Below are positions 711 to 64,000 of a stretch of 64,000 bases of DNA, in pieces. The notes beneath the pieces are model-generated. The model was not told where the DNA came from. It saw only the letters and a list, made by a program, of their open reading frames with translations, and made no database searches. The DNA is from Frigoribacterium sp. CFBP 13712 (GTDB lineage Bacteria; Actinomycetota; Actinomycetes; Actinomycetales; Microbacteriaceae): contig NZ_JACYVH010000004.1 in assembly GCF_014842255.1 (NCBI RefSeq), positions 160,399-224,398 on the forward strand, written 5' to 3'. A program made the position numbers and the translations under genes. The number at the start of each line of letters is the position of its first letter. Positions within the stretch are counted from its first letter, which is position 1.

Positions 711-769
711 AGGAGGCGCGGGTCAACCCGTTCAGGAGCGGCAGGCCGGCACGTCAGGAGGCGCGGTTC
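711..769 (+). repeat. two copies of the dispersed AGGAGGCGCGG word
   Basis: An exact copy, AGGAGGCGCGGGTC, lies at 711-724 and a one-base variant, AGGAGGCGCGGTTC, at 756-769. Both sit between the sensor-kinase stop (786) and the PepSY gene start (587). On the coding strand of these minus genes the RNA would read the CCUCCU version. Confidence 0.8.
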
Positions 770-785
770 GGCCCGTCCCGCCCGC

Positions 786-2300
786 TCATGCAGCGCCGGG
801 GGGCAGGTCGACGACGAAGCGCGCGCCGCCCAGAGGGGACTCGCCGACCGTGACCGTTCCGCCGTGCACGCGGGCGATCTCGCGGACGATCGCGAGCCCC
901 AGACCGCTGCCGCCCGAGTCGCGGGTGCGGGCCTCGTCGAGTCGCACGAACCGGTCGAAGACGCGCTCGCGGTCGGCCTGCGGCACTCCGGCTCCGTCGT
1001 CGTCGACCGTCAGCACGGCCCGCCCGTGCCGCTCGACCAGCCACACCGCGACCCGCGTCTCGGCGTGCCGCGCGGCGTTGGCGAGGAGGTTGCGCACCAC
1101 CTGGCCGAGCAGCCCCTCGTCGCCGTCGACCCGCGCCGGGCCGACGCCGGTCGCGTCGACGGCGAGACCCGGTGTCGCCCCGCGCAGTCGCGCCGTCTCG
1201 GTCACCACGAGGTCGTCGAGGTCGACGGGGCGACGGGTGACGCCGAGCGCTCCCTCGTCGGCGCGAGCGAGGACCAGCAGGCCCTGCACGAGCCCGGTGA
1301 GCCGCGCCTCCTCGGTCATCACCGTGCCCGCGAGCGCGGCGCCGTCGATGCTCTCGGGGTGCAGCAGGGCGACCTCGGCGTGCTGGCGGATGGTCGCGAG
1401 GGGCGTCTTCAGCTCGTGCGAGGCGTCGCCGACGAAGCGGCGCTGGGCCGCGGCCGACGACTCGAGCCGGGCCAGCATGTCGTTCAGCGTGCGGGCGAGT
1501 CGGGCGACCTCGTCGGTGCCGCCGGGGTCGGCCACGCGCCGATCGAGCTGAGCCGCCGTGACGGCGTCGACCTCGCGGCGCATCGCCTCGACGGGGCGGA
1601 GCGCCCGGCCGACGACGAGCCAGGTCGTCACGGCCAGCACCAGCAGAGCGACCGGGATCGCGACCCCGAGCGTGACGAGACTGGCCGAGGAGGCGGCCCG
1701 CGCCTCCTCGAGGGATCTCACGGCGACGACGGTGACGGTCGCCGCGGGGTCGGCGTTCGTGTCGGCGTCGGCGTCGTCCGCGTCGGAATCGGCGTCGGAG
1801 TCGGTATCGGAGTCGTCGTCGTCCGAGTCGACGGAGCCCGAACCCGAACCCGAACCCGAACCCGAGCCCGAACCGCTCGAGGCGTCGTCGCCCGGTCGGG
1901 TCGCCGATTCGGTCGCCACGACGTACGTGTCGCCGTCGATCCGCGCCGTGGGGCCGAGCGCCGACGGGTCTCCGACGCTGCCGTCGGTGAGGTGCTCGAG
2001 CAGATCGTCGTCTCCCCCGGCGGCGAGCAGGGCCCCGGTGCGGTCGACGACGAGCACCGCTCCGTCGTCGGTGTCGCCCGCAGCGGCCGTCGCGGGCGCG
2101 GTGCCGGCCTCGATCGCCGACGCGACCCGGTCGGCGTCGGTCTGGGCCGCCGACCGCGGGGCGTCGTCGAGCACGGCCCGCTGCACGAGCGCGAAGACCA
2201 GGGTGAAGACGCCCAGCGTGAGGGCGACCGCGAGCACCGCGGCCACCGTGATCCGCAGCCGGAGGGAGGCGCGGCGCCCGACCGCGGGCCCGTCAGCCAC
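786..2300 (-). CDS. two-component sensor histidine kinase
   Basis: The 504-residue protein has the classic EnvZ/BaeS-like layout. TM1 is about 17-40, an extracytoplasmic region about 41-207, TM2 about 208-231, then HAMP, the phosphoacceptor box DASHELKTPL with His295, an N-box (LLANAARHA), and G-boxes DDDGAGVP and GSGLGLAIV. It would autophosphorylate and pass phosphate to the response regulator encoded just upstream. Its GTG start overlaps the regulator's stop codon by 8 bp, so the two are translationally coupled. The sensor loop is odd: an SG dipeptide run (about 141-157, hexanucleotide repeats in the DNA) is followed by a strongly acidic Asp run to about 182. An acidic loop could bind cations, but the signal is not evident from sequence. 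Confidence 0.93.
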   Translation of the reverse strand: MADGPAVGRRASLRLRITVAAVLAVALTLGVFTLVFALVQRAVLDDAPRSAAQTDADRVASAIEAGTAPATAAAGDTDDGAVLVVDRTGALLAAGGDDDLLEHLTDGSVGDPSALGPTARIDGDTYVVATESATRPGDDASSGSGSGSGSGSGSGSVDSDDDDSDTDSDADSDADDADADTNADPAATVTVVAVRSLEEARAASSASLVTLGVAIPVALLVLAVTTWLVVGRALRPVEAMRREVDAVTAAQLDRRVADPGGTDEVARLARTLNDMLARLESSAAAQRRFVGDASHELKTPLATIRQHAEVALLHPESIDGAALAGTVMTEEARLTGLVQGLLVLARADEGALGVTRRPVDLDDLVVTETARLRGATPGLAVDATGVGPARVDGDEGLLGQVVRNLLANAARHAETRVAVWLVERHGRAVLTVDDDGAGVPQADRERVFDRFVRLDEARTRDSGGSGLGLAIVREIARVHGGTVTVGESPLGGARFVVDLPPGAA

Positions 2301-3159: not shown

Positions 3160-3173
3160 AGGAGGCGCGGGTC
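3160..3173 (+). repeat. dispersed AGGAGGCGCGGGTC word overlapping a stop codon
   Basis: This exact copy overlaps the SDR stop codon (3172-3174, minus strand), so the mRNA reads UGACCCGCGCCUCCU at its 3' end. The same arrangement occurs at the MFS stop (17222). Confidence 0.85.
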
Positions 3174-5340: not shown

Positions 5341-5380
5341 ACCCGCGCCTCCTCGGCGAGGTCGACCCGCGCCTCCTCGG
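5341..5380 (-). repeat. tandem pair of the dispersed word
   Basis: ACCCGCGCCTCCTCGG (5341-5356) and GACCCGCGCCTCCTCGG (5364-5380) are direct repeats about 24 bp apart, between the ABC-operon terminator and the start of the gene at 5302. Confidence 0.85.
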
Positions 5381-6853: not shown

Positions 6854-6908
6854 TCCGTACGGGTTGGAGGTCGAGGAGGTGCGGGTCGGGTGACCCGGGA
6901 GGGGTGGC

Positions 6909-12103: not shown

Positions 12104-12207
12104 CAGGCACAGCGCGCGACAGCGCCTGATGGGTACTGTGCGCGACAGCGCCTAGTCGAGCACAGCGCGCGACAGCGGCTGACAGGCACAGCGCGCGACA
12201 GCGGCCG
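12089..12207. repeat. 26-bp minisatellite at the 3' end of the lacI-type gene
   Basis: The core CGCGACAGCG recurs at 12089, 12115, 12141, 12168 and 12194, a period of 26-27 bp. Fuller units read like CAGGCACAGCGCGCGACAGC. The first unit includes the LacI stop codon; the remainder is non-coding. The second, fourth and fifth units are the most alike. Confidence 0.8.
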
Positions 12208-12318
12208 TGGTGGTGTGCAAATCCCGACAGAATCGGCCGAAATGATGGCGTTGAGCCGCCAAAAAGGCATCTGAGCAGTGTCTTTGTCGGGTTTGGCACA
12301 CCCGGCCGGGCATGCGCG

Positions 12319-12523
12319 GTCGGGTTCGGCACGCCGAGGAGGCGCGGCGAAGTCCTCGAGACAGCCGGCAGTCGGGTTCGGTACCAAGGAAGCGCGGGCG
12401 AAGTCCCCCAGACAGCCGGCAGTCGGGTTCGGTACCAAGGAGGCGCGGGCGAAGTCCCCCAGACAGCCGGCAGTCGGGTTCGGTACGTAGGAGGCGCGGG
12501 CGAAGTCCCCGAGACAGCCAGCG
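12319..12523. repeat. 51-52 bp tandem array with the dispersed word in each unit
   Basis: Units begin with GTCGGGTTCGG at 12319, 12371, 12422 and 12473 and each contains a GGAGGCGCGG-type word (12335, 12388, 12438, 12490; the second has one change) followed by GCGAAGTCC and AGACAGCCGGCA. Units 2 and 3 are almost identical. A degenerate half unit precedes the array (12287) and another follows (from about 12524). Confidence 0.85.
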
Positions 12524-12592
12524 GGCGGGATCGGCAGACGTGCCCGGGTTCTGCAGCCGCGCCTCCGAGTCCGGAGGGCGCACGGCCTGGCC

Positions 12593-12609
12593 GACCCGCG
12601 CCTCCTGGG
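12593..12609 (-). repeat. exact dispersed word
   Basis: GACCCGCGCCTCCTGGG, about 90 bp before the HAD gene; a truncated relative, CCGCGCCTCCGAG, lies at 12558. Confidence 0.75.
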
Positions 12610-15824: not shown

Positions 15825-17224
15825 GCACGATGTTCCGCAGCCTCTCGCTGGTCAACTACCGGCTGTGGTTCGCCGGCGCCCTCGTGTCGAACATCGGCAC
15901 GTGGATGCAGCGCACGGCGCAGGACTGGCTCGTCCTCACCGATCTGACCGACGACGATGCGACGGCGCTCGGCATCACCATGGCGCTGCAGTTCGCGCCG
16001 CCCATCCTGATGGTGCCCGTCACGGGGCTGATCGCCGACCGGTTCGACCGGAGACGGCTGCTGATGGTGACGCAGCTGAGCATGGGCCTGCTCGGACTCG
16101 CCCTCGGCCTGCTCGTGCTGACCGACACGGTCGAGCTCTGGATGGTCTACGTCTTCGCTCTGCTGCTCGGCGTCGCAGCCGCCATCGATGCGCCCGTGCG
16201 GCAGAGCTTCGTCTCCGAGCTCGTCCCGCCCGGTCATCTCACCAACGCCGTCAGTCTCAACTCGGCCTCGTTCAACGGCGCCCGCCTGATCGGCCCGGCC
16301 GTCGCGGGGGTGCTCATCGCGACGATCGGCACGGGCTGGGTGTTCATGATCAACGCCGGCTCGTTCGCGGCGGTGCTGCTGTCGCTGCGGTTCATCCGGG
16401 TGGCGCAGCTCGAGCTGAAACCGGTCGTCTCGCGAGCGAAGGGCCAGATCAGAGAGGGGTTCCGGTACGTCCGCGACCGTCCCGACCTCGTGGTCGTCTT
16501 CGTCATGGTGTTCGTGATCGGCACCTTCGGCCTCAACTTCGCCATCTTCACCTCGACGATGGCGAGCGTCGAGTTCGGCACCGACGCGAGCGGCTTCGGC
16601 CTGCTCTCGTCGTGCATCGCCGTCGGCTCGCTGGTCGGCGCCCTGCTCTCGGCCCGACGCGAGCGGCCCCGATGGCGCGTGCTGATCGCGGCCGCGCTCG
16701 CCTTCGGCGTGACCTGCCTCGTCTCGGCCCTGATGCCGTCGTACTGGAGCTTCGCCGCCGTGCTCGTCGCGGTCGGGCTGTCGTCGATCACCCTCATGAC
16801 GACGGCGAACGCGACCGTGCAGCTGACGACGGCACCGAGGATGCGCGGCCGCGTCATGGCCCTCTACATGGCGGTCTTCACGGGTGGCACGCCGCTCGGC
16901 GCACCGGTGGTCGGCTGGGTCGCCGACGTGGCCGGCCCCCGCTGGGCCATCGGCGTGGCCGCCGCCTCGGGCTTCGTCGCCGCCGCCGTGGCGATCGTGT
17001 GGCTGATCCGGGGTCGGCATCTGCGCGTGCATCGGGTGCTGCCCGACGACCCGGCGGTCGCGACGGGCGCGCTTCCCGTGGTCGGTGCGGGGCGGTTCCA
17101 CTACACGCTGCAGCACGACGGCGACGCCGCGGGGCAGACCGCCGCGCGCGAGCGCGCCGCGCGCGAGCAGGCGGCCCGCGATCTCGGTCTGGACGAGGGG
17201 ACCGCGACGGATCGGCCGACCTGA
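15821..17224 (+). CDS. MFS transporter (DHA3/MFS_3 type exporter)
   Basis: The 467-residue protein begins MFRSL-like, then [28 protein letters not shown], the signature start of the MFS_3 (PF05977-like) exporters. About 12 membrane segments follow, with a central loop near residues 200-225. A conserved [14 protein letters not shown] lies near residue 347. The cytoplasmic tail (about 400-467) is Ala/Arg/Glu-rich. Such proteins export drugs or siderophores; the substrate is unknown. The GTG at 15821 is chosen because AGGGCG lies 6 nt upstream and the start overlaps the leader-ORF stop; an ATG at 15830 is possible. The stop codon is fused to an exact dispersed word. Confidence 0.9.
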
Positions 17225-17239
17225 CCCGCGCCTCCTCGG
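17223..17239 (-). repeat. exact dispersed word at the MFS stop codon
   Basis: GACCCGCGCCTCCTCGG begins at the second base of the MFS TGA stop (17222-17224). Confidence 0.85.
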
Positions 17240-19873: not shown

Positions 19874-20845
19874 ATGAACAGAGTCTCCGCAGCAGTCACC
19901 GCCGGACTCGTCATGAGCGCCGCCGGTCTGCTGATCGCCCTCGCCTCGACCTTCCGGCTCGTGCAGACGGGTCTCTTCACCGGCGACTACGTCGCCCCCG
20001 GCCAGCTCGACTTCGAGGCCGTGGCGTTCGCCGTGCTCGGCATCGGCCTCTTCGTCTCAGGGCTCGCCTTCGCCCTGGTCGGTCTCGCCGACATAGTCCT
20101 CGGCGCCCTGCCCGCCGACTCGGTCGAACCGACCTCCGACCCCGCCGAGGAGGCGCGCCAGGCCCCCGCGGACCAGCGCGCGGTCGTTCCCCGCCCGGCT
20201 CCGGCTCCCCCGGCCCGCGCCTCCTCCGCTCCCGACCGTGCGGGCTACGAGCCCGCCGCGTACGAGCCGGCCCGCCACGCCTCCGTCCAGGACGAGCCCC
20301 GGGGGTACGTGCCCGAGGGGCGCGCACCCGAGAGACCGGCGCCCGTCGACGACGCTCCGGTCGGGCCCAGCGCCGCCGACCGGCTGCGCACCCGGAGTGC
20401 GACGATCGCGGCCGCGGCCGGACCGATCGCCAAGTCGGGGTGGGACCGCGTCCGCAGCGGCAGCCGGGCCGCCGGGGCCGCGACCGCCGCCGGGGCGCGC
20501 GCCACGGGGGATGGCATGCGCCGCGCCTCCTCGGCCGCTGCGGCCCGTGCCCGCGAGAACGCCCGCGCCCTCGCCGCCGCGCGCGAGGTCGACCGCCAGC
20601 GCGACCTCGAGCGCGAGGAGGCCCTGACCAGCGCCCGCGCGAGGTTCCTCGCCGACCGCCATTCGCCGACGACGCCCGCTCCCACGACGCTGCGCCCGGC
20701 GAACCTGCCTCATGTGTCGCCGCGTCCTGCGGAGCAGCGACCCGTGTCGAAACGCCCGGCAGGGCAGCGCCCGGCGGAGCAGCGTCCGGCGGAGCAGCCG
20801 CCGACCGCCGAGACGCCGACCGGCTCCGGCACCCGACTGCGCTGA
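19874..20845 (+). CDS. two-TM membrane protein with long Pro/Ala/Arg-rich tail
   Basis: The 323-residue protein has a near-perfect GAGGAGG ribosome site before the ATG at 19874. Two hydrophobic segments (about 8-28 and 55-80) are followed by a long cytoplasmic tail. The tail is disordered: Pro/Ala/Glu-rich, then an Arg/Ala-rich helical part (about 205-265), then repeated RPAEQRPA-type units at the end. I recognise no family. The tail contains several variants of the dispersed word (near 20147, 20214 and 20521), translated in different frames. It may act as a membrane-tethered scaffold, but that is speculation. The high Arg content could make the tail bind nucleic acid. Confidence 0.6.
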   Translation: MNRVSAAVTAGLVMSAAGLLIALASTFRLVQTGLFTGDYVAPGQLDFEAVAFAVLGIGLFVSGLAFALVGLADIVLGALPADSVEPTSDPAEEARQAPADQRAVVPRPAPAPPARASSAPDRAGYEPAAYEPARHASVQDEPRGYVPEGRAPERPAPVDDAPVGPSAADRLRTRSATIAAAAGPIAKSGWDRVRSGSRAAGAATAAGARATGDGMRRASSAAAARARENARALAAAREVDRQRDLEREEALTSARARFLADRHSPTTPAPTTLRPANLPHVSPRPAEQRPVSKRPAGQRPAEQRPAEQPPTAETPTGSGTRLR

Positions 20846-24801: not shown

Positions 24802-26645
24802 GGGGTTCCTTCCGAAGTGGGTGCCCCGAGATCGGAGCGGGGGCCCGCAGGAGGCGCGGGTCGGCCTCGTGAACCGACCCGCGCCTCCTCGGCTCGTCGC
24901 TGTTGTTGCTGCTGCTGCTCGTGCTCCTGCTGCTGCTGGGCCTGCTGGTCGTTGCGGGGGTCGTCCTGCGGGGCGTGATCGGGGCTGTGGTCGCCGTGCG
25001 GCGAGGCGTCGGCGATGATCGGGATGGACTGCGTCGGCGTCGTCTGCTCGGCGATCAGGGCGCTGACGTCGTGGCCGGCCCAGGCGTTGACGTCGCCGCC
25101 GACGATCCAGGTGTCCTTCGAGCCGCCGCCCTGGCTGCTGTTGACGACCAGCTCGCCTTCGGGCAGGGCGACCCGCGTCAGACCGCCGGGCAGCACCCAG
25201 ACGTGGTCGCCGTCGTGCACGGCGAAGGGCCGCAGGTCGGCGTGCCGGGCGCGGAGCCCCTCGTCGACGAGGGTGGGGATGGTGCTCAGCTGCACGACCG
25301 GCTGCGCGATCCAGCCGCGCGGGTCGGCCAGCAGCTGCGCGCGCAGCACGTCGAGCTCGCGTCGGCTCGCGGCCGGGCCGACGACCAGCCCCTTGCCGCC
25401 CGAGCCGTCCACCGGCTTGACGACCAGCTCGTCGAGCCGGTCGAGCACCTCGTCGAGAGCGCCCGGGTCTTCGAGACGCCAGGTGCGGACGTTCGGCAGC
25501 AGCGCCTCCTCGCCGAGGTAGTAGCGGATCAGCTCGGGCAGGTACGTGTACACGAGCTTGTCGTCGGCGACGCCGTTGCCCACCGCGTTGGCGATCGTCA
25601 CGGTGCCGAGGCGGGCGGCCATCAGGAGGCCCGGCGAACCCAGCACGGAGTCGGCCCGGAACTGCAGCGGGTCGAGGAACTCGTCGTCGACCCGCCGGTA
25701 GATGACGTCGACGCGCTCGGGGCCGCCGGTGGTGCGCATGAACACCCGGCCGCCCGAGCAGTAGAGGTCGCGGCCCTCGACCAGCTCGACGCCCATCAGA
25801 CGGGCCAGCAGGGTGTGCTCGTAGTAGGCCGAGTTGAAGACGCCGGGGGTCAGCACGACGACGGTGGGCTCGTCGACGCCCGACGGCGCGCTCTTCTTCA
25901 GAGCCGAGAGGAGGCGGTTGGGGTAGTCGCCGACGGGCCGCACGCGCATCGAGACGAACAGCTCGGGCAGGGTCTGCGCCATGACGCGACGGTTCGAGAT
26001 GACGTAGCTGACGCCGCTCGGCACCCGCACGTTGTCTTCGAGCACGCACCAGGCGCCCGCCTCGTCGCGGATCAGGTCGATGCCCGACACCTGGATCCGC
26101 ACGCCGTTGGCGGGCTCGATGCCCGCCGCCTGACGGTGGAAGTGACTCGACGAGGTCAGGAGGCTCGCGGGGATGACCCCGTCGGCCACCGCGCGCTGCG
26201 GCCCGTAGACGTCGGCCAGGAACGCCTCGAGCGCCTTGACCCGCTGCGCGATGCCGGCCTCGACCCCCGACCACTCGTCGTGCTCGACCACCCGCGGCAC
26301 GGCGTCGAGGGGGAACGGGCGCTCCTCCCCCGCGAAGTCGAAGGTGACGCCCTGGGCGAGGTACGAGTCGGCGAGCGCCGCCGTCCGACCGCGCAGGTCG
26401 TCCTGCGTCATGGCCTCGAGGGTCGCGTGGATGTCGGCGTAGGCGCGGCGGGCCTGGCCGTCGGTGTCGAACATCTCGTCCCACGCGCGGGGCGGGGTGC
26501 GGGTGCTGGCGGCGGTGCCGGTCGTGCGGGTGCCGCCGCGTGCGCCGCCGCGGGCGCCGTCGTGCGCGCGGCTGTGCGCGCCGCTGTGCGAGCCGCTGTG
26601 CGCGCCGCCCCGAGTATCGCCGTAACCACTGAAGAGGTCGCCCAT
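24795..26645 (-). CDS. circularly permuted ATP-grasp protein (DUF404/DUF407)
   Basis: The 616-residue protein (ATG at 26645) has a normal core from about residue 45 to 545: WDEMFD, RAYADIHATLEAMTQDDLRGR, FLADVYGPQRAV, YLPELIRYYLGEEALLPNVRTW and VVKPVDGSGGKGLVVGP, the nucleotide-binding loop of permuted ATP-grasp ligases. It should activate a carboxylate with ATP and form an amide or peptide bond. The ends are unusual. Residues about 12-40 are AHSGSHSGAHSRAH-type repeats, and the tail (about 550-590) is His/Asp- then Gln/Glu-rich (QQ runs). The final 30 residues come partly from an inverted pair of the dispersed word. Gene order and overlaps define the trio operon. Confidence 0.93.
   Translation of the reverse strand: MGDLFSGYGDTRGGAHSGSHSGAHSRAHDGARGGARGGTRTTGTAASTRTPPRAWDEMFDTDGQARRAYADIHATLEAMTQDDLRGRTAALADSYLAQGVTFDFAGEERPFPLDAVPRVVEHDEWSGVEAGIAQRVKALEAFLADVYGPQRAVADGVIPASLLTSSSHFHRQAAGIEPANGVRIQVSGIDLIRDEAGAWCVLEDNVRVPSGVSYVISNRRVMAQTLPELFVSMRVRPVGDYPNRLLSALKKSAPSGVDEPTVVVLTPGVFNSAYYEHTLLARLMGVELVEGRDLYCSGGRVFMRTTGGPERVDVIYRRVDDEFLDPLQFRADSVLGSPGLLMAARLGTVTIANAVGNGVADDKLVYTYLPELIRYYLGEEALLPNVRTWRLEDPGALDEVLDRLDELVVKPVDGSGGKGLVVGPAASRRELDVLRAQLLADPRGWIAQPVVQLSTIPTLVDEGLRARHADLRPFAVHDGDHVWVLPGGLTRVALPEGELVVNSSQGGGSKDTWIVGGDVNAWAGHDVSALIAEQTTPTQSIPIIADASPHGDHSPDHAPQDDPRNDQQAQQQQEHEQQQQQQRRAEEARVGSRGRPAPPAGPRSDLGAPTSEGTPC
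24849..24892. repeat. inverted pair of exact dispersed words
   Basis: AGGAGGCGCGGGTC (24849-24862) and GACCCGCGCCTCCTCGG (24876-24892) face each other, giving 15-bp perfect arms around about 9 nt. They lie inside the 3' end of the ATP-grasp gene and are translated. Confidence 0.85.
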
Positions 26646-31735: not shown

Positions 31736-31786
31736 ATTCTACGGGGCCGAGCCGCGCCTCCTCGGGGCCGACCCGCGCCTCCTCGG
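31736..31786 (-). promoter_or_regulatory. -10 of the phosphatidyltransferase gene with two dispersed words upstream
   Basis: TAGAAT (31736-31741) on the minus strand is a strong -10. The place of the -35 is occupied by two tandem words, GCCGCGCCTCCTCGG (from 31751) and the exact GACCCGCGCCTCCTCGG (31770-31786), with a 20-bp period including the spacer GGCC. Confidence 0.5.
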
Positions 31787-31797: not shown

Positions 31798-32835
31798 TCA
31801 GCCGCCGTAGCCGCGCAGGCTGCTCGTCAGTGTCTGGCCGTCGACGTAGAGGTAGCAGCTGATGATGCGGTCGCCCGCACTCCAGCCCTCTTCGGTGGGC
31901 TGGAGGAAGTCGTAGCCGATCACGGACTCCTCGAACTCGACGCCCACGAACCCGGGGAACGCGTCGTAGCAGAGCTGGTCGGCGGCCTCGCTGAGGGCCT
32001 GATCGCCCGGGAACTCGACGTCGGGCGCCTCGTCTTCGAAGAACACCTCGTTGTCGTGCGGTGTCGTGCAGTCCTGTCGTTCGACCTCGACGACGACCCC
32101 GCCGGTGGTGCCCTGGCCGAACGAGAAGCAGTCGCCCAGTCGCAGGTCCTCGACGGGGGTGCCCGAGCCGCTGCCGTCCGCACCGCCGCCCGACCCGCCG
32201 TCGGCGCCCGTGCCGCCGCCGGTGCTCGACGCCGCGTCGACGAAGCCGCGCACGGCCCCGATGAGGCCGACGGACGACAGCCCGAGCATCACGATCACGA
32301 CCACCGCGACGATGGCGATGAGCGGCCGCCGCCGACGCAGCGGGCTGGGCGACCCCTCGGGCGTCGGCTGCCAGTACCCGTCGGGGCCGTGGGCCCGGTC
32401 GCGGGGCACGTAGGGGGCGGGCGTCGGCGCCCCGAAGGCGGCGGGCGCGGGGATCGCAGGAGGCGCGGGTCGGCGCGCGAGGACGGCCGGCGCATCCGCC
32501 TCGTCGGCCCCCACCGCCTCGGCCCAGCGTCCGACCGAGGCGACGACGGCATCGACGACGACCGCCTGATCGCTGTGCAGCGGCAGCCCGAGGCGCTCGA
32601 CCGAGCGGTCGGCGACCGGGGTCACACCGGTGGAGTCGGCCGACAGACCGGCGACGAACCAGTCGCGGCCGTCGTCGGCGAGGTCGAGGTAGAGACGGTG
32701 GCCGAGACGCAGGCGCAGGGCGGCACCGCCGACGAGGTAGTCGGACGGACGCCCGTCGATCTCGACGCCGGGCAGGGCCCGCCGCAGACGGGCCGCCAGC
32801 TGCTCGAACAGCGGCGGCAGATACGAGTTCGTCAC
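31798..32835 (-). CDS. septum-formation-like membrane protein
   Basis: The 345-residue protein (GTG at 32835, GAGGAGAA site) has three parts. Residues about 1-105 are a globular domain (LFEQLAARLRRALPGVEIDGRPSDYLVG...) resembling actinobacterial sensory or chaperone-like N-domains. Then comes a Pro/Ala-rich linker containing a translated dispersed word (32458). A single TM (about 185-207) leads to an extracellular Gly/Ser-rich linker and a C-terminal domain (about 245-345) with LRLGDCFSF, VVVEVERQDCTTPHDNEVFFE and four or so cysteines. This matches the Septum_form-type domain found outside the membrane in actinobacteria. Its role in division is by family name only. Confidence 0.8.
   Translation of the reverse strand: MTNSYLPPLFEQLAARLRRALPGVEIDGRPSDYLVGGAALRLRLGHRLYLDLADDGRDWFVAGLSADSTGVTPVADRSVERLGLPLHSDQAVVVDAVVASVGRWAEAVGADEADAPAVLARRPAPPAIPAPAAFGAPTPAPYVPRDRAHGPDGYWQPTPEGSPSPLRRRRPLIAIVAVVVIVMLGLSSVGLIGAVRGFVDAASSTGGGTGADGGSGGGADGSGSGTPVEDLRLGDCFSFGQGTTGGVVVEVERQDCTTPHDNEVFFEDEAPDVEFPGDQALSEAADQLCYDAFPGFVGVEFEESVIGYDFLQPTEEGWSAGDRIISCYLYVDGQTLTSSLRGYGG
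32458..32471 (+). repeat. exact dispersed word inside a coding linker
   Basis: AGGAGGCGCGGGTC, translated on the minus strand as part of RRPAPPA in the Pro-rich linker. Confidence 0.8.
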
Positions 32836-34200: not shown

Positions 34201-34508
34201 AGTGAGTCCTTTCATAGACGGATGTCGACGTGCGCCGGAGCGCACCCCGAGCGGAACCACCGAGGAGGCGCGGGCATTCCGCCGAGGACGGCCCGGTCTC
34301 CGAGTCCGCAGCAGCTTCACAGGCAGGGGTTGCGGGCGGGGCTCGCGAGCGGAGCGGCGGGCGGGGCGCGGTGGCGGCCACCCGGTCGACCGCCGGGGTG
34401 GCCGCGACGGGTGATGCGCGCGTGCACCGGGCGGTATCGGGGCGAGACCGGTCGTGTCCCCGTTATGGAGGATTGCCGAGGTGCGGGGCGACTCCTATGC
34501 TCGGCTCC
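34201..34508. other. 308-bp divergent intergenic region
   Basis: No gene is supported. It contains a word variant, GAGGAGGCGCGGG, at 34262-34274, simple GCGGGCGGGGC-type sequence near 34340, and at its right end the strong promoter for the gene at 34509. Confidence 0.6.
34473..34501 (+). promoter_or_regulatory. strong leaderless promoter of the gene at 34509
   Basis: -35 TTGCCG (34473-34478), a 17-bp spacer and -10 TATGCT (34496-34501) are followed by 7 nt and the GTG. It is the best-formed leaderless promoter in the window. Confidence 0.7.
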
Positions 34509-41135: not shown

Positions 41136-42086
41136 GTGACCACACCCCGCACCCGCCTCGCCGTGCTCGGTTCGCCCATCGCCCACTCGCTCTCGCCCGT
41201 GCTGCACCGGGCCGCCTACGACGCCCTCGGTCTGCCCTACGAGTACGACCGCGTCGAGGTCGCCTCGGGGGCGCTCGGCGGCTTCGTCGCCTCCCTCGAT
41301 CGGAGCTGGCGCGGCCTCAGTCTCACCATGCCGCTGAAGCGCGAGGTGCTGCCGCTGCTCGACACCGTCTCGCCGCTCGCCCGCCGGCTGGGCGTCGCGA
41401 ACACGGTCGTCCTCGACGCCGACGGGCGACGGCATGGTCACAACACCGACGTCGACGGCATCGTCCGCTCGGTCGCCCTGCGGCACGACGCCCGGCCGAC
41501 CTCCGCGGTCGTGCTCGGCGGGGGCGCCACGGCCGCCTCGGCGCTGTCCGCCGCCTGGCGCCTCGGGGTGCGCTCGGTCGCCGTGCTCGTCCGCGACCCC
41601 CGTCGCGCCGGCGAGCTCGCGCCGCTCGCGTCCGATCTCGGGGTCGACCTCGAGATCCACCCGCTGACGGCGCTCGCCGGTCTCGGCCCTCTCGACTTCG
41701 TCATCAGCACCCTCCCGGGAGGCGCGGCGGACGACCTCCCGCTCGCACCGGTCGACGGGGCCTCCCTGCTGTTCGACGTCGCCTACGAGCCGTGGCCGAC
41801 CCGCGCCTCCTCCCGCTGGTCCGACGCCGGGGGGCTCGTGCTGAACGGGCTCGACATGCTCGTCGAGCAGGCGATCTCGCAGGTCGCTCTCTTCGCCGAC
41901 GGCGGCGAAGGCGAGGCGCGGGCCGGGCACGACGGCGGGGGCGCCACGACCGCGGTCGACGAACCGCGCGAGGCGGCGCGAGTGCGTGAGGCGATGCGTC
42001 GGGCGGTGGGCTCCCTCTCGGGGTCGACCCGCGCCTCCTCGGCATCCTCGGAATCCGTCCCGACCTCCGACGACGGAAGGCGCTGA
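41136..42086 (+). CDS. aroE: shikimate dehydrogenase-type oxidoreductase
   Basis: The 316-residue protein (GTG at 41136, GGAGG site) has SPIAHSLSPVLHRAAY for shikimate binding, catalytic Lys in TMPLKREV, NTDVDGIV with catalytic Asp, and a Rossmann loop, VLGGGATAASALSA. It reduces 3-dehydroshikimate to shikimate with NADPH in aromatic amino-acid synthesis. The C-terminal 45 residues extend beyond the usual length and contain a translated exact dispersed word (42026-42042); another lies in a loop (41798-41812). The next gene, aroD, begins one base after the stop. Pairing with a type I dehydroquinase supports the pathway, though quinate or shikimate catabolism is an alternative. Confidence 0.9.
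   Translation: MTTPRTRLAVLGSPIAHSLSPVLHRAAYDALGLPYEYDRVEVASGALGGFVASLDRSWRGLSLTMPLKREVLPLLDTVSPLARRLGVANTVVLDADGRRHGHNTDVDGIVRSVALRHDARPTSAVVLGGGATAASALSAAWRLGVRSVAVLVRDPRRAGELAPLASDLGVDLEIHPLTALAGLGPLDFVISTLPGGAADDLPLAPVDGASLLFDVAYEPWPTRASSRWSDAGGLVLNGLDMLVEQAISQVALFADGGEGEARAGHDGGGATTAVDEPREAARVREAMRRAVGSLSGSTRASSASSESVPTSDDGRR
41798..41812 (-). repeat. exact dispersed word inside aroE
   Basis: GACCCGCGCCTCCTC, translated as TRASS in a surface loop near residue 222. Confidence 0.8.
42026..42042 (-). repeat. exact dispersed word in the aroE tail
   Basis: GACCCGCGCCTCCTCGG, translated as TRASSA in the last 20 residues. Confidence 0.8.
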
Positions 42087-42087: not shown

Positions 42088-42861
42088 ATGATCCCGACCC
42101 CTCGCCCCGTGACCCTGCGGTCGATCGTGCTCGGCGACGGCCGACCCGCCGTCTGCGTGCCGCTCACCGGTCGCACCGAGGAGGCGCTGGTCGCCACAGC
42201 CGCCGCACTCCCCCGCGAGGCGTACGACGTCGTCGAGCTGCGCGTCGACTGGCTCACCGCGGTCGACGACATCGCTCAGGCCATGTCGGCGCTCGTCGCC
42301 GTCCGGGCGACCCTGCCCGACGACGTGCCGGTGATCGCGACCTTCCGCACGAAGCAGGAGGGCGGCGAGCGCGACATCACCCCCGACGACTACGGCCTGC
42401 TGCTCGGCGCCCTGATCGGGACGGGCGCGGCGGACGCCGTCGACGTCGAGATGTTCACGCAGCCCGACGTGCTCGAGTCCGTCGTCGACGCCGCGCGCTC
42501 GGCAGGGGTGCCGGTCATCATGTCGTCGCACGACTTCGCCGCGACGCCCACGCGCGACGAGATCGTCTCGCGACTGCTTCTGCAGCAGGAGCTCGGCGCC
42601 GACGTCGTGAAGCTCGCCGCCATGCCACGGTCGGCGGACGACGTGCTGACGCTGCTCGCGGCGACCCTCGAGTTCAGGGCGGGGGCGGGGCTGGTGCCGG
42701 CCGTGACCATGTCGATGGGGCCGCTCGGCGCGGTGTCGCGCGTGGCGGGCGAGGCCTTCGGCTCGTGCCTGACCTTCGGCACGGTGGGCGAGTCGAGCGC
42801 GCCGGGGCAGCTGGACGCCGCCGGGCTGCGCGCGACGCTCGAGCTGCTGCACCGCGGGTAG
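42088..42861 (+). CDS. aroD: type I 3-dehydroquinate dehydratase
   Basis: The 257-residue protein (ATG at 42088, GGAAGG site) shows type I DHQase signatures: VVELRVDWL with the substrate-binding Glu and Arg, the general-base His in IMSSHDF, Schiff-base Lys in DVVKLAAMP, and SMGPLGAVSRVAGEAFGS at the end. It dehydrates 3-dehydroquinate to 3-dehydroshikimate through a lysine imine. It overlaps in function with aroE one base upstream, so the two likely act together. Most actinobacteria use the type II enzyme, so a type I copy beside aroE may be a second, catabolic or specialised pair. Confidence 0.93.
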   Translation: MIPTPRPVTLRSIVLGDGRPAVCVPLTGRTEEALVATAAALPREAYDVVELRVDWLTAVDDIAQAMSALVAVRATLPDDVPVIATFRTKQEGGERDITPDDYGLLLGALIGTGAADAVDVEMFTQPDVLESVVDAARSAGVPVIMSSHDFAATPTRDEIVSRLLLQQELGADVVKLAAMPRSADDVLTLLAATLEFRAGAGLVPAVTMSMGPLGAVSRVAGEAFGSCLTFGTVGESSAPGQLDAAGLRATLELLHRG

Positions 42862-42895
42862 CGGCGGGGCACGGGCACTGCGCCAGGATGCGGAC

Positions 42896-52705: not shown

Positions 52706-52709
52706 GAGG

Positions 52710-55320: not shown

Positions 55321-58300
55321 TCAGCCCCCGACGGTCGAGCGGAGGGTCGACGACCCGTCGGGCAGGCGACGCACCTCGATGCGGTCGGCGATCCGCTGCT
55401 TGAGCTCGTCGACGTGGCTGACGATGCCGACGACCCGACCTGCGGCCGAGAGCCGGCCCAGCTCGGTCATCACGGCGTCGAGTGTGGTGGGGTCGAGCGA
55501 TCCGAAGCCCTCGTCGACGAAGAGGGTGCCCAGCTGCAGCCCGCCGGCCTCGGCCTGCACGACGTCGGCGAGTCCGAGAGCGAGGCTGAGCGACGCGTAG
55601 AACGTCTCGCCGCCCGAGAAGCTGCCGGGGTCGCGGGTCGTGTCGGTCGCGTGGTCGCGGATCGCCAGCGACAGCCCGGTCTTGCGCGACCTCGACGTCG
55701 CCTCGCGCTCGTCGGACGACTCGAGCTGGTACCGACCGCTCGACATGACCGACAGCCGCGCGTTGGCCGCCGCGACGACGTCGTCGAACCGCCGCAGCAG
55801 CACGTACGTGCCGAGCGTCACGCCCTTCACGTTGACCGCCGAGGAGGCGCTGGCCAGGTCGGCCATCCGCACGATCGCCCGGGCACGCTCCGCCGCGTCG
55901 TCCCCGACGGCTGCGGCCTGCCGCAGTGCGACGAGGGCTGCAGACGACCGCTCGGCCCGGTCGCGCGCCCGAGCGGTCTCGGCGGCGATCGACGTCGCCG
56001 CGGCCTCGGTCTCCGCCGCACGCTCGGTCGCCAGGGCGACCCGCTGCTCGACCGCGGCCTCGGCCCCGACACGTGCATCGTCGCCCGGACCTACGCCCGA
56101 TGCGTCGTCGAGCCCCGCGATCTCCGGCTCGGCGAGCCCGGCGGCGACGACGGCGAGCTCGCGATCGTGCGCCGCGATCACCGCGTCGAGCCGGCCGACC
56201 TCCGCACGATCCAGGACCGCTGCGGAGACGGCCTCGACGTCGGCGAAGCCCGCGTCGGCGAGCGACTCGTCGAGGTCGGCGCGTCGCCTCGCGACCTCGT
56301 CGACGGCGATCACCTCGGCGTCGAGAGCCTCGACGAGGCGCGCCACGGCGCCGTGCCGGCGCCCGATGACCGCGACGAGCTCCGCCACGCTGTCGGCCCG
56401 CCCCCCGAGGTGCCGTCCGACGGCGGCGGTGTCGTCGTCGAGTCGTCGCTGGTCGGCCGCCGCCTGCGCGACGGCCGTGGCGGTGCCGACCCGCGCCTCC
56501 TCGAGCTCGGTGCGTCGGCGCTCGGTCTCGGCGTCGTGGGCGTCGAGCGCGAGCGCGGCCGCGTCGCGATCGCCCGCCACGCGGCGCGCGGCCTCGACCC
56601 GGGCCAGCGCCGCGTCGAGCTCCGCCTCGACCTCGGCACGGGTGACGCCGCCCAGTTCGGTCGCCCGCTCGTCTCGCCGGGCGACGGCGACCGAACGACG
56701 TGCGGCGGCGGCAGCGAGGGCCGACTCGCAGCGCACGCGCTCGTCGGTCGCCCGGTCGACGGCGTCGTCGTCGGGGTGGTCGGCGGTGGTCACGGCCGGA
56801 GCCGGGTGGTGCTCGGATCCGCAGACCGGGCAGGGCTCGCCGACGAGGAGGTCGCCCGCGAGCTCGCCCGCCATCCCGGCGATCTTGCGGCGGCGCAGGT
56901 CGTTCTCGACCCCGGCGGCGTCGAGAGCCACCCGGGCCGCCTCGTGCAGATCGGCGGTCGCGCGGTCGAGCTCGTCCTCGAAGCGGTCGAGCCCGTCGAT
57001 GAGGTCACGTCGCCTGCGCCCCTCCGCCACCGCGGCCTCGGCGGGCCCCACGGCGACGACGGCCTCGGTCAACGCACCGAGCGCCGCCTCGAGCTCTCGG
57101 CGGACCGCGGGCAGCTCGGCCTGGGCCCGCTCGAGCTCGTCGACGCGCGCCACCTCGGCCGCGACCTGCGCCTCGAGCACGTCGAGAGCGGCCCGGCGGT
57201 CGACGAGGGTCGCTTCGAGCCGGGCGCTCTCGGCGGACGACCCGGCCTCCGCCGTCAGGGCGTCGCGTCGAGCCGCCGCCGAGTCGCGGTCGGTCGTCTC
57301 GGTCAGATCGGCGTCGAGGTCGCCGGACTCGCGCGCCATACCGACCTGCGCGACGGCGGTCGAGAGCCGCTCGTCGGCCCGGCGGAGCCCCTCGACCGCG
57401 ACGGTCACCGAGGAGGCGCGGCGCGCGTCGTCGACCCGGCCCCGTGCCTCCTGCACATCGGCTTCGACCTCGCGGGCCGCCGCCTCGCGACGGAGCAGCG
57501 CCGCGCGTCGCTCGAGCGCCCGCTGCAGACGCCGTTGCTCGTCGAGGTGAGACCGGGCCGCGTCGCGATCGCCGACCGCCGCGGCCCGCCGACCCTCGAG
57601 CTCGATGGCGGTCGCGGCCAGCCCGGCGACCAGACCGCCCAACCCGTCGCGCCCCTCCGGCCCATCTGAGCCCTGCTGCCCGCCCGGCACCCCGAAGTCC
57701 GCCGCGGCTGCGGCGAAGGCCTCGTCGTCGACCCCCGTCGCCTCGCGCAGCCGCCCGAGCGCGAGCTCGACCTCGCGCTCGGCGGCGGCTATCGAGGCGC
57801 GCGCGGCGACCCGTCGCTCGACGAGCTGGGCCGTCGTCTTCTCGTAGATCTCGGTGCCGAACAGCGACTGCAGCACCTCTTTGCGCTTCTCGCCGGTCGA
57901 GCGCAGAAAAGCCGCGAACTCGCCCTGCGGCAGCACGACGGTCTGCACGAACTGCTGCCGGGTGAGCCCCAGGATGCGCGCGATCTCGGCCCCGGTCTCT
58001 TGCGCGCTGGTCGACACGACGGTGCCCTCGACCGCATCGGGCGAGGTCAGCAGCACGAGGGTCACGGTCTGGTTCTGCGGGGTCGTACCCGTGCCACGGG
58101 CCTTCGGTCGACGGTAGGCCGGGGTCCGTCTGACCCGGTGGATGCCCGCCGCGGTCTCGAAGACGACCTCGACGAACGGCTCGACCGTGGGGGCGGCGTG
58201 ATGGCTGCGCAACCGGTCGGGGCTGGAGGTCGAACCGGCCAGACCGCCGTAGAGGGCGAAGACGAGCGCGTCGATGATCGTCGACTTGCCCGACCCGGTC

Positions 58301-61738: not shown

Positions 61739-62746
61739 CTACAGCACGCTCTTCGGCACCCGGTGCAGCGTCACGGCGCCGACCGCGTCGAACGGGTGCA
61801 GCGGGTCCGGGGCGCCCGACCCCGTCGGCCCGCCGAGCCGTGAGTGCCCGACGGCGCTGAGCACCGCGTAGGCGTCGCCGCGGGTCCAGCCGTGGTCGTC
61901 GACCAGGAACGAGAACGCGTCCTCGTACCCGCGCCGGATGCTCTCCTGCACCGGCTCGCCCAGCCCGACGAAGATCCAGTCGTCGGCCGTCTCGATCCGA
62001 GGGGCCCGCAGCGAGAGCCCCTTCACGACGTCGATCGACACGACCGCCGTGCCCTCCGCCTCGATGGCGACGAACGACGACTCGCCCTCGGCCATGATCG
62101 CGTGCACGTCGCCGATCGAGAGGTACGCGCCCTCGACCATGACGGGCAGGTACACGGTCGAGCCGACGCGGTTCTCGGTGACGTCCATGTTGCCGCCCTG
62201 CGCGTACGCCGGCATGATCGTCGAGTTCTCGCCGGTCGCCGGGGCGGTGCCCATGCAGCCGATCATCGGCCGCGGTGCGAACACGTGCCGGTCGGTCACG
62301 TGCACCCCCTCGTCGTCGATGGGCACGCGGCGCGTGAACATCTCGTCGCCCATCACGTGCTGCAGTGCGCCCGACCCGGGCAATGCGACGGACCAGCCGT
62401 GCGCCACGAGCCGGATCTCGTGCACGGTCACGGCGAGCGCGTCGCCGGGCATCGCACCTTCGACGTAGACGGGGCCGGTGACGGGGTTGATCGGCACCGA
62501 CAGCTTCGCGAGGTCGCGGTGCTCGTGCAGCTCGGCGTAGACGGCGTCACTGGTCTCGAAGCCGATGCGCTCGCCCGTGCCGGGGGTGATCCGCAGGGCG
62601 GGCTCGACGTCGGCGGTGAAGCCGGGGCGCCCATGCTCCTTGCCCAGGAAGTGGTCGACACCGTCGACACGTCCCGCCGAGGAGGCGCGGGTCGGGTCGC
62701 CCGCGCCCCCGCCGGCCCCCGAGGCGGTCGCCTCCACCCCGCTCAT
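61739..62746 (-). CDS. acetamidase/formamidase family protein
   Basis: The 335-residue protein (ATG at 62746) overlaps the upstream permease stop as ATGA. It matches FmdA/AmdA: GPVYVEGAMPGDALAVTVHEI, RPMIGCMGTAPATGE, MPAYAQGGNMDVTENRVGSTVYLPV and SIGDVHAIMAEGE, with conserved Asp, His and Glu at the zinc site. It would split formamide or a related short amide to ammonia and acid. An N-terminal 25-residue extension contains a translated exact word (DPTRASSA). Operon with an amino-acid permease suggests the permease imports the amide or an amine that yields it. Confidence 0.92.
   Translation of the reverse strand: MSGVEATASGAGGGAGDPTRASSAGRVDGVDHFLGKEHGRPGFTADVEPALRITPGTGERIGFETSDAVYAELHEHRDLAKLSVPINPVTGPVYVEGAMPGDALAVTVHEIRLVAHGWSVALPGSGALQHVMGDEMFTRRVPIDDEGVHVTDRHVFAPRPMIGCMGTAPATGENSTIMPAYAQGGNMDVTENRVGSTVYLPVMVEGAYLSIGDVHAIMAEGESSFVAIEAEGTAVVSIDVVKGLSLRAPRIETADDWIFVGLGEPVQESIRRGYEDAFSFLVDDHGWTRGDAYAVLSAVGHSRLGGPTGSGAPDPLHPFDAVGAVTLHRVPKSVL
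62679..62693 (+). repeat. exact dispersed word in the formamidase N-terminus
   Basis: GAGGAGGCGCGGGTC; the coding strand reads DPTRASS at about residues 18-24. Confidence 0.8.
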
Positions 62747-64000
62747 GCGTCGTGCCGTTCGGAGTCGGCGGCGGGTGCGGCCGTGGCCGGCGTCGCACCG
62801 TGGTCGGCACCGGACGGGATGACCGGCGCCGCGCCTCCTCGGCTCCGGTAGTAGAGGAACACGCCTGCGCCGAGCACGAGCCAGACGAGTCCGCCGATCT
62901 TGGCCTCGGGGGCGGCGTTCACGAGCACGTAGCCGATGATGAGGAACCCGATGACGGGCACGACGAGGTGCAGCAGCCAGTTGCGCGACTTCCTCTTGAC
63001 GACGTAGTGCACGACGACCGAGACGTGCAGCAGCATGAAGCCGAACAGGGCGCCGAAGTTCACCAGTGACGCGATGAGGTCGATCTGTCCGACGAAGAAC
63101 AGCACGAGCACGGCCGACAGCGCCGAGACGAGCAGGATGGCGGCCTGCGGCACCTGGCGGCTGTTGATGGTGGACAGGAACGCGGGCAGCTGACGGTCGC
63201 GGCTCATCGAGAAGAGCAGACGCGAGGTGGCGGCCTGCGCGGCCATCGCGTTGGCGATGCCGATCGCGAGCACGTTGACGACCAGGAACGCCGTCGACCA
63301 GCCGCTGCTCGACGCCGCCTCGACCAGCGAGAAGAACGCGTTGCCGACCTCGTCCTTCCCGAAGGAGTCGCGACCGGCGGCGAGGGCGCTGGCGAGCCAG
63401 GTCTGCACGACGAAGAGCGTGGCGACGATCACCAGGGCGATGATCATGGCCTTGCCCGCTCCGCCGCGCTTGCCGGTGCTCTCCTCCGACAGCGTCGAGA
63501 TGCCGTCGAAGCCCAGGAAGCTCAGCACCGCGATCGACAGCGCCGACGCGAGGAGCGGCGCGGTGACCTTGCTGGAGTCCCAGATCGGGTCGGCGGTGAA
63601 CTCGGCGCCGGGGATCGTGCCGTCGTTCAGCGCGATGACCGCGATGATGACGAAGATCACGACGAAGACGACCTCGATGGCCAGGAACACCCGGTTCATC
63701 AGCTTGATCGAGCTGATGCCGAGCAGGTTGATCGCGGTGTTGATCGCGACGAAGATCAGCGCCCACATCCACCGGGCGCTCCCGGGGAAGATCCCGATCA
63801 TCGACTCGGCGGCGAAGACGTAGAGCAGCGTCGGCACGAGCAGGTAGTCGAGCAGGATCGCCCAGCCGGCGAAGAACCCGGCGATGGGGTGGATGCCGCG
63901 ACCGACGTACGAGAACACCGAACCGGCCAGCGGGATCGACTTCGCCATCTGCGCGTAGGCGAGCGCCGTGAAGATCATCGCGATGAGGCCGATCAGGTAG
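62743..64000 (-). CDS. APC-superfamily amino-acid permease, N-terminus outside window
   Basis: At least 419 codons are visible; the frame stays open to the right edge, reading ...YLIGLIAMIFTALAYAQMAKSIPLAGSVFSYVGRGI. That is helix 2 or 3 of APC-type permeases. About ten further helices follow, with LSFLGFDGISTLSEESTGKRGGAGKAM, the conserved helix-6 and loop region. The cytoplasmic C-terminus is short and contains a variant of the dispersed word (62829). It probably imports an amino acid, amine or amide that feeds the formamidase with which it overlaps. The internal ATG at 63978 is not the start. Confidence 0.9.
   Translation of the reverse strand, partial: YLIGLIAMIFTALAYAQMAKSIPLAGSVFSYVGRGIHPIAGFFAGWAILLDYLLVPTLLYVFAAESMIGIFPGSARWMWALIFVAINTAINLLGISSIKLMNRVFLAIEVVFVVIFVIIAVIALNDGTIPGAEFTADPIWDSSKVTAPLLASALSIAVLSFLGFDGISTLSEESTGKRGGAGKAMIIALVIVATLFVVQTWLASALAAGRDSFGKDEVGNAFFSLVEAASSSGWSTAFLVVNVLAIGIANAMAAQAATSRLLFSMSRDRQLPAFLSTINSRQVPQAAILLVSALSAVLVLFFVGQIDLIASLVNFGALFGFMLLHVSVVVHYVVKRKSRNWLLHLVVPVIGFLIIGYVLVNAAPEAKIGGLVWLVLGAGVFLYYRSRGGAAPVIPSGADHGATPATAAPAADSERHDA
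62829..62842 (-). repeat. variant of the dispersed word inside the permease tail
   Basis: CCGCGCCTCCTCGG, translated on the coding strand as SRGGAA just after the last membrane helix. Confidence 0.65.

What the first reader, a model, noticed from the sequence alone, without database searches (positions are those of the whole stretch)
711..62842. A dispersed 13-17 bp word, core ACCCGCGCCTCCT, occurs about 14 times exactly plus many variants
By my reading the exact 13-mer (either strand) starts near 711, 3160, 5341, 5365, 12594, 17224, 24849, 24877, 31771, 32458, 41799, 42027, 56489 and 62680. Variants lie near 756, 3044, 4829, 12335-12490, 15770, 20214, 20521, 34262, 38950, 57410, 59009, 60193 and 62829. 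With about 36% each G and C and 14% each A and T, a given 13-mer of this composition is expected about 0.03 times in 64 kb on both strands. Many copies extend to GACCCGCGCCTCCTCGG. It occurs on both strands and spreads over the whole window. It could be a binding site for a nucleoid, segregation or repair protein, a REP-like mobile word, or a methylation target. I know no description of it.
Basis: partly seen in the sequence, partly recalled or inferred. Interest (0 to 1): 0.85.

Follow-up and report, generated by a model that had tools for sequence, protein, structure and literature searches.

The report
Genus-wide uptake-signal-like DNA word
A short DNA word is written hundreds to over a thousand times in the genomes of one bacterial genus, between and inside genes, and is kept letter-perfect much as 'self-DNA' uptake signals are in some other bacteria; if an uptake test confirms it, it would be such a signal in a Gram-positive lineage.

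Summary
Observation confirmed: 14 of 14 coordinates exact, shuffles give 0. The 13-mer occurs 488 times genome-wide, reversed control 0. The core CCGCGCCTCCT occurs 383-1239 times in 16 of 16 genus genomes and 0-26 times, about control level, in 44 others. The motif is asymmetric, about 25-30 bp, with a nearly invariant core. It is 4-7 times denser between genes than inside, mostly near stop codons, without replication polarity. Inside genes it is 13-17 times commoner than synonymous shuffles give, is gained and lost mostly without gaps, and its synonymous sites are strongly conserved. One species has a second form. Different words of this kind reach 829 and 812 copies in two Microbacterium species. 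ComEC is in 16 of 16 genus genomes; ComEA and a Tad cluster are in this genome. Best explanation: an uptake-signal-like (DUS/USS-like) word. Uptake itself is untested. Main rival: the site of a chromosome-organising or repair protein. REP-like insertion, Chi/KOPS, codon bias and ribosome binding are not supported. Against the main reading: no enrichment in core over accessory genes.

The parts
711..723 (-). exact word, outside called genes, before gene 786-2300 (-) on its 3' side
756..768 (-). one-mismatch copy, 45 bp from the previous one
1300..1312 (+). one-mismatch copy inside gene 786-2300 (histidine kinase)
1696..1708 (+). one-mismatch copy inside gene 786-2300
3160..3172 (-). exact word whose first A is the last base of the TGA stop of gene 3172-3924 (-)
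5341..5353 (+). exact word between genes, first of a direct pair at spacing 24
5365..5377 (+). exact word between genes, second of the direct pair
6874..6886 (-). one-mismatch copy between genes
12438..12450 (-). one-mismatch copy inside a 51-bp tandem array (12295-12534)
12489..12501 (-). one-mismatch copy inside the same 51-bp array
12594..12606 (+). exact word between genes
17224..17236 (+). exact word whose first A is the last base of the TGA stop of gene 15830-17224 (+)
20213..20225 (+). one-mismatch copy inside gene 19874-20845
24849..24861 (-). exact word, left arm of an inverted pair inside the called 3' end of gene 24795-26645 (-)
24877..24889 (+). exact word, right arm of the inverted pair; the stretch folds with a 16-bp perfect stem, z -5.57
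31750..31762 (+). one-mismatch copy between genes, direct pair at spacing 21
31771..31783 (+). exact word between genes, direct pair
32458..32470 (-). exact word inside gene 31798-32886
34263..34275 (-). one-mismatch copy between called genes
41799..41811 (+). exact word inside gene 41136-42086 (shikimate dehydrogenase, substrate-binding domain)
42027..42039 (+). exact word inside gene 41136-42086
42179..42191 (-). one-mismatch copy inside gene 42088-42861 (type I dehydroquinase)
56489..56501 (+). exact word inside gene 55321-58407 (SbcC-like)
62680..62692 (-). exact word inside gene 61739-62746

Best explanation
The word works like a DNA uptake signal (DUS/USS) in a high-GC, probably Gram-positive actinobacterial genus. 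Proposed mechanism: a surface DNA-binding part of the competence machinery (a Tad-type minor pilin, ComEA or an unknown receptor) prefers double-stranded DNA that carries CGACCCGCGCCTCCTCGGC. DNA of self and near kin is then taken up and recombined more often, so any place that mutates to a perfect word is copied preferentially into other cells. Words accumulate and stay perfect where sequence is permissive: after stop codons, and in codons that tolerate the letters. Shown here: abundance, strand balance, sharp core, extended motif, synonymous conservation, gain and loss mostly without gaps, restriction to one genus, a second form in one species, different words in Microbacterium, and genes for ComEA, ComEC and a Tad pilus. 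Inferred: the receptor, preferential uptake and the copying drive.
For: Top over-represented 13-mer, 113 against 0.63; 383-1239 core copies in 16 of 16 genus genomes and 0-26 in 44 others. Perfect 10-mer 369 against 31.5 expected while its 30 one-mismatch neighbours sum to 519 against 464 in G000. 61 coding copies against 3.65 in synonymous shuffles. 196 of 207 unchanged-residue codons inside words keep the same codon (94.7%, expected 58.8%, z 11.3). Denser between genes, poorest between divergent genes; inverted pairs at spacing 26-29; no replication polarity. Second form ACCCGCGACTCC 136 copies in G006, 0-5 in 15 others. Other words: CGGAACCACG 829 in M. mitrae, CGGCATCCAC 812 in M. jejuense. 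ComEC in 16 of 16, ComEA and Tad genes in G000. Natural transformation is reported for Micrococcus luteus with Flp/Tad pili (PMC6370729, passages) and for Rhodoluna lacicola and Aurantimicrobium photophilum (PMC11577799, passages).
Against: No uptake was measured and no receptor identified. Word density in genes shared by three species equals that in unshared genes (0.233 and 0.232 per kb). Spacing is not more even than random. Gene-end bias is weak. Intergenic exact 13-mers are not clearly more conserved than controls (5 of 18 perfect, mean mismatches 2.83 against 2.85). In a 27-kb region around comEC most of the 14 reference words are not perfect in most other species. Four 100-kb samples of other genera show no comparable word although ComEC-type competence is widespread (the spread is recalled).
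Confidence: 0.55

Rival explanations
1. The word is the site of a lineage-specific chromosome-organising, segregation or repair protein (a nucleoid-type or HIP1-like word) and each site is kept by weak selection.
For: DNA-level constraint, both strands, spread along contig C1; extended motif as for a bound protein. Equal density in core and accessory genes is easily explained this way.
Against: About 1150 core sites in one genome with hardly any excess of one-mismatch sites is unusually strict for a structural protein (inference); the whole word differs in Microbacterium; copies avoid divergent intergenic regions and favour gene ends, as expected of permissive placement.
Confidence: 0.3
2. A hairpin or terminator element at gene ends, copied for transcription termination.
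For: Inverted pairs, 10 of 18 outward pairs in G000 at spacing 26-29; a stem with z -5.57 at window 24840-24898; enrichment near stop codons; tandem gene gaps show a mild sense excess, 120 sense to 88 antisense over four species.
Against: Only 35 adjacent pairs within 80 bp among 379 G000 core sites; more than half of exact copies lie inside genes (61 of 113), 130 sense and 100 antisense for the core; direct pairs do not fold better than shuffles (two tested).
Confidence: 0.05
3. A REP-like mobile word spread by insertion.
For: Clusters in some intergenic regions: a 51-bp tandem array carrying the word, direct pairs at 21-45 bp.
Against: No Y1/RAYT transposase in the genome; of 79 coding words in genes with orthologues in G002 only 3 are gapped or unaligned; one-mismatch relics are near chance.
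Confidence: 0.04
4. A by-product of codon usage, GC content or ribosome-binding sites.
For: Favoured frames use common codons; the reverse complement contains AGGAGG; density rises with local GC.
Against: Synonymous shuffles give 3.65 against 61; 44 genomes of other genera of the family hold 0-3 copies; intergenic copies lie nearer stops (median 25-43 bp) than starts (median 66-89 bp) and on both strands.
Confidence: 0.01

Closest known systems
DNA uptake sequence (DUS) of Neisseriaceae
   Same: Short asymmetric word in very many copies, intragenic and intergenic, inverted pairs, lineage dialects (PMC3630211, abstract, outline and passages; here).
   Different: Unrelated word; different phylum; about 1150 core copies here against thousands there; no uptake data here; Tad-type pilus genes rather than type IVa pili with ComP; no core-genome enrichment here.
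Uptake signal sequence (USS) of Pasteurellaceae
   Same: Strict core with extended weak flanks (flanks of USS recalled), strand balance; two word types within one family (PMC2346458, part 1 of 3).
   Different: Unrelated word; the gene-end bias reported there is weak here; no uptake data here.
HIP1 of cyanobacteria
   Same: Highly iterated word in a clade, kept by selection, also inside genes (PMC6604393, passages).
   Different: HIP1 is a palindromic octamer with a methylase site in its core; this word is asymmetric and longer.
REP elements with RAYT transposases
   Same: Intergenic clusters and inverted pairs.
   Different: No Y1 transposase found; 61 of 113 exact copies inside genes; little sign of insertion.

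Membership tests
DNA uptake sequence / uptake signal sequence | The word in donor DNA increases uptake or transformation | not testable with these tools
   Needs a wet-lab uptake assay; this is the defining feature, so membership is not claimed.
DNA uptake sequence / uptake signal sequence | Short word among the most over-represented of the genome, hundreds to thousands of copies | tested here: met
   488 13-mers, 1152 11-mer cores, top 13-mer in an 852-kb sample.
DNA uptake sequence / uptake signal sequence | Both strands, no genome orientation bias | tested here: met
   263/225; +180/-149 on a contig whose genes are +234/-437.
DNA uptake sequence / uptake signal sequence | Intragenic and intergenic copies, inverted pairs near gene ends | tested here: met
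DNA uptake sequence / uptake signal sequence | Lineage-specific dialects | tested here: met
   Second form in G006 only; different words in Microbacterium.
DNA uptake sequence / uptake signal sequence | Competence machinery in the host | tested here: met
   ComEC 16 of 16; ComEA, TadA, T2SSF and TadE-type proteins in G000. DprA and others not sought.
DNA uptake sequence / uptake signal sequence | Accumulation in the core genome (reported association, not strictly defining) | tested here: not met
   0.233 per kb in shared genes, 0.232 in unshared genes of three species.
DNA uptake sequence / uptake signal sequence | Bias to gene ends (reported for Pasteurellaceae) | tested here: inconclusive
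   Sense by fifths 69, 55, 59, 36, 66; antisense 34, 53, 53, 50, 66.
DNA uptake sequence / uptake signal sequence | Specific surface receptor | not testable with these tools
   No receptor known; candidates are the minor pilins and ComEA.
REP element with RAYT | Y1/RAYT transposase in the genome | tested here: not met
   PF01797: 0 matches in G000, 5 of 14 control genomes positive.
REP element with RAYT | Spread by insertion, essentially intergenic | tested here: not met
   61 of 113 exact copies inside genes; 76 of 79 coding words aligned without gaps to G002.
Chi or KOPS-type polar motif | Orientation bias along the replichore | tested here: not met
   +180/-149 on contig C1 with strongly strand-biased genes; one contig, replichore inferred from gene strands.
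HIP1-type iterated palindrome | Palindromic word | tested here: not met
   The core CCGCGCCTCC is not its own reverse complement.

The most novel reading that the evidence does not exclude
Actinobacteria of this group recognise self DNA by sequence during natural transformation: several lineages each carry their own unrelated high-copy uptake word (GACCCGCGCCTCCTCGG here, CGGCATCCAC and CGGAACCACG in Microbacterium species), read by a Tad- or ComEA-type receptor that has changed specificity repeatedly. That would be a further independent origin of uptake signals, and to my knowledge the first in Gram-positive bacteria.
Probability: 0.45. Interest if true: 0.93.

Novelty: new variant of a known kind. 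Interest (0 to 1): 0.82.

Why it matters
As far as I know (recalled), uptake signals are established only in two Gram-negative families, and why they exist (self-recognition, a drive of the uptake process, or a by-product) is an old question. A case in actinobacteria with several unrelated words in related lineages would give independent evolutionary replicates, a way to find the receptor by comparing species whose word has switched, and a direct test by uptake competition. If the word instead serves a chromosomal protein, about a thousand near-perfect, conserved sites that switch between lineages would be unexpected too.

Tried and rejected

Negative or unhelpful: core against accessory density shows no difference; a first, smaller version (2 words in 25.7 kb of unshared genes) had suggested depletion and did not hold when pooled. 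Even spacing was not shown. Four 5-kb windows under 64% GC hold no word, but density rises with GC generally, so this does not single out foreign DNA. A stretch at the start of contig C2 without exact 13-mers was not free of the core. RecQ relatives gave no genome of the same genus and no usable family placement; a plasmid search did not name the genus. Four 100-kb samples of other genera of the family showed no comparable word. In the 13 named loci, the Cryobacterium word is a 6-bp tandem repeat and was set aside; Modestobacter CGGTCAGCGC, Agromyces GGCATCCGTC and weaker ones were not counted genome-wide. Of the 16 M. mitrae copies in its locus, 9 lie in one repeat-rich stretch of about 650 bp and 7 are scattered. 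Several unnamed family genomes show a milder excess of CGGCATCCAC (G018 180 against 22, G016 138 against 16, G022 146 against 41, G032 125 against 3), not explained.

Printed record: literature searches listed nothing that describes this word or uptake signals in actinobacteria. They cover open-licence PubMed Central papers only, lists were capped (one search showed 25 of 510 hits, mostly unrelated papers; one search showed 20 of 3,825), and preprints are not held.
Full report
THE OBSERVATION. In the window's own genome (3,155,852 bases, 40 contigs) the 13-mer occurs 263 + 225 = 488 times and the word read backwards 0 times. In 852,173 bases of that genome (contig C1, the window and 20 kb of C2) it is the most over-represented 13-mer, 113 against 0.63 from a fifth-order Markov model; the 11-mer CCGCGCCTCCT occurs 286 times against 10.8.

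WHO HAS IT. The 15 other genomes held for the genus have 98-484 exact copies; 44 genomes of other genera of the family have 0-3, and 39 of other families of the order 0-5. Eight named genomes (Clavibacter, Cryobacterium, Leifsonia, two Microbacterium, Agromyces, Leucobacter, Sediminivirga) have 0-5. The 11-mer core occurs 383-1239 times in the 16 genus genomes, with reversed controls of 4-27, and 0-26 times in 44 other genomes (21 of the family, 23 of the order), about the level of their own controls. So it marks one genus among those examined. The tools give that genus no name.

WHAT THE MOTIF IS. Weight matrices refined in four species (G000, G002, G006, G015) converge on about CCCGACCCGCGCCTCCTCGGC, 0.37-0.47 sites per kb. 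For isolated copies (none other within 120 bp; 362 coding and 164 intergenic, from three species) the same weak preferences reach from about -14 to +16 in both classes: G at -8, A at -7, G at -3, A or C at -2, GG at +12 and +13. The core is sharp: in G000 the perfect 10-mer CCGCGCCTCC occurs 369 times against 31.5 expected, while its 30 one-mismatch neighbours together occur 519 times against 464 (G002 223 against 216, G015 211 against 185, G006 391 against 295). I infer recognition of double-stranded DNA by a protein with an exacting core and a footprint of two to three turns. In G006 the sixth base of the core is C or A and the T after the core is relaxed; ACCCGCGACTCC occurs 136 times there and 0-5 times in the other 15.

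WHERE IT SITS. Of 113 exact copies 61 lie inside genes, 43 between and 9 across a gene boundary; two in the window share the last A of a TGA stop codon (3160, 17224). Genes were called by a simple script, so boundaries are approximate. Core density is 1.2-1.7 per kb between genes and 0.23-0.42 inside genes in four species, lowest between divergent genes (0.5-1.0 per kb), with a median distance to a stop codon of 25-43 bp. On contig C1, whose genes lean to one strand throughout (+234/-437), the core runs +180/-149, so there is no replication polarity. Copies inside G000 genes are 130 sense and 100 antisense; in gaps between tandem genes the four species together give 120 sense and 88 antisense, a mild sense excess. 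In G000 35 neighbouring pairs lie within 80 bp against 13.5 expected at random; 10 of the 18 outward pairs are spaced 26-29 bp. The window's pair at 24849/24877 folds with a 16-bp perfect stem, z -5.57, while two direct pairs do not fold better than shuffles.

SELECTION ON THE DNA WORD. In called genes the 13-mer occurs 61 times against a mean of 3.65 (maximum 8) in 20 synonymous-codon shuffles, and the 11-mer 159 against 11.75. All six frames occur, chiefly those with common codons. Of 79 coding core words of G000 in genes with a reciprocal best hit in G002, 62 are perfect in G002, 6 differ by one base, 8 by three to six, and 3 are gapped or unaligned. Codons inside words whose amino acid is unchanged keep the same codon in 196 of 207 cases (94.7%), against 58.8% expected from the same codons outside words in the same gene pairs (z 11.3). 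The reverse direction gives z 11.1, and three comparisons with the more distant G015 give z 5.1, 5.6 and 7.4. Where the relative differs by three or more bases, the amino acids are nevertheless the same in some cases (1 of 8 in G002, 3 of 26 in G015), so the word can come or go in place by substitution. By plain DNA alignment coding 13-mers are more conserved than GC-matched controls in G002 (13 of 21 perfect, 62% against 17%); intergenic 11-mers are too (18 of 38 perfect, 47% against 18%), but exact intergenic 13-mers are not clearly so (5 of 18 perfect, mean mismatches 2.83 against 2.85), and with G015 the contrast in mean mismatches is small. Turnover is real: around comEC most of the 14 G000 words are not perfect in most of 12 other species.

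OTHER WORDS IN RELATIVES. Four 100-kb samples of other genera of the family showed nothing comparable. In the 22-kb loci of named relatives already held, where the method finds this motif as top word in 56 of 70 calibration segments of the genus, two Microbacterium loci gave words around CGGCATCC and a third gave CGGAACCACG. Whole-genome counts: CGGCATCCAC 812 in M. jejuense (control 25) and 211 in M. hydrocarbonoxydans (control 30), but 18 in M. mitrae (control 18) and 45 in G000 (control 32), among 23 genomes; CGGAACCACG 829 in M. mitrae (413 + 416, control 3) and 5-33 in the 16 other genomes. In the called genes of those loci the counts exceed synonymous shuffles: 27 against 2.7, 21 against 3.5, and 6 against 0.2. 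Strand-balanced high-copy words thus recur, and the word differs between genera and even inside Microbacterium.

MACHINERY. ComEC is found in 16 of 16 genus genomes. In G000 comEA (TIGR00426 over its cut-off, TIGR01259 below its cut-off; SLBB and HHH_3 domains) and comEC lie next to leuS. A Tad cluster lies at C1:470,241-473,290: TadA (TIGR03819 over cut-off), a T2SSF protein, a DUF4244 protein that looks like the Flp pilin by eye, and TadE-type minor pilins (NF041390 and TIGR03816 over cut-off). Micrococcus luteus, an actinobacterium, transforms with ComEA/ComEC and Flp/Tad pili (PMC6370729, passages), and two Microbacteriaceae, Rhodoluna lacicola and Aurantimicrobium photophilum, take up DNA naturally (PMC11577799, passages). 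One word lies inside comEA and is perfect in 8 of 12 species compared. A tract of about 2 kb in G014 is 82% like G000, while the surrounding alignment to G015 is 78% there and 84-89% on the flanks and in the comEC region; this is what recombination between species of the genus would leave, but it is a single case.

MECHANISM. The facts resemble DNA uptake sequences. PMC3630211 (abstract, outline and passages) reports very many copies, permissive intergenic and intragenic sites, inverted pairs linked to terminators, and dialects by lineage; PMC2346458 (part 1 of 3) notes that no general orientation bias had been seen. The proposed working is preferential uptake of word-bearing DNA by a surface receptor, followed by recombination that copies perfect words through the population. 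The pattern is shown; uptake, receptor and drive are inferred. I therefore say that it works like an uptake signal (0.55) and do not file it as a member of that family.

AGAINST. Words are as dense in genes shared by three species as in unshared genes (186 words in 800 kb and 25 in 108 kb, pooled over the three genomes, so shared genes count three times; 0.233 and 0.232 per kb). Spacing is no more even than random. The gene-end bias reported for Pasteurellaceae is weak: sense copies by fifths 69, 55, 59, 36, 66, antisense 34, 53, 53, 50, 66. A chromosome-organising or repair protein with an exacting site is the main rival (0.3). The change of the whole word between relatives and the near lack of a one-mismatch excess speak against it but do not exclude it.

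VERDICT. A real and striking feature, correctly spotted. Most likely a new variant of a known kind: an uptake-signal-like word in an actinobacterial genus, with different words in Microbacterium. An uptake competition would decide.

Noticed in passing
L084 (Microbacterium mitrae), whole genome G105: A different high-copy word, CGGAACCACG: 829 copies, control 3; 5-33 copies in 16 other genomes.
   Followed up: partly
L083 and L082 (Microbacterium jejuense, M. hydrocarbonoxydans), genomes G107 and G102: A further word around CGGCATCCAC: 812 and 211 copies, controls 25 and 30; milder excess in several unnamed family genomes.
   Followed up: partly
G000 contig C1 near 13.2, 32.5, 39.8, 85.9, 93.3 and 662 kb: A second over-represented 13-mer, AGGAGTTGCCGAC: 18 copies, often as outward inverted pairs about 72-85 bp apart with differing sequence between.
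   Followed up: no
window 42870-42960: A dispersed hairpin-forming repeat of about 65 bp (fold z -3.16) with partial copies elsewhere in G000, G002 and others.
   Followed up: no
window 12081-12534: Two local arrays: a 51-bp repeat that carries the word, and a repeat built on GCGCGACAGCG.
   Followed up: no
G014 locus L144:1501-3533: A tract of about 2 kb closer to G000 than to G014's usual relative G015, suggesting recombination between species.
   Followed up: partly
L077 (Modestobacter muralis): CGGTCAGCGC 10 times in 22 kb against 0.54 expected; coding count 8 against 2.7 in synonymous shuffles. Perhaps another such word, perhaps codon usage.
   Followed up: no
G000 C2:3000-20800 (L359, L360): A lower-GC stretch (down to 59% per 5 kb) with one core word inside, bounded by two copies of the same gene start (10845 and 20708 region); possibly an inserted island.
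   Followed up: no
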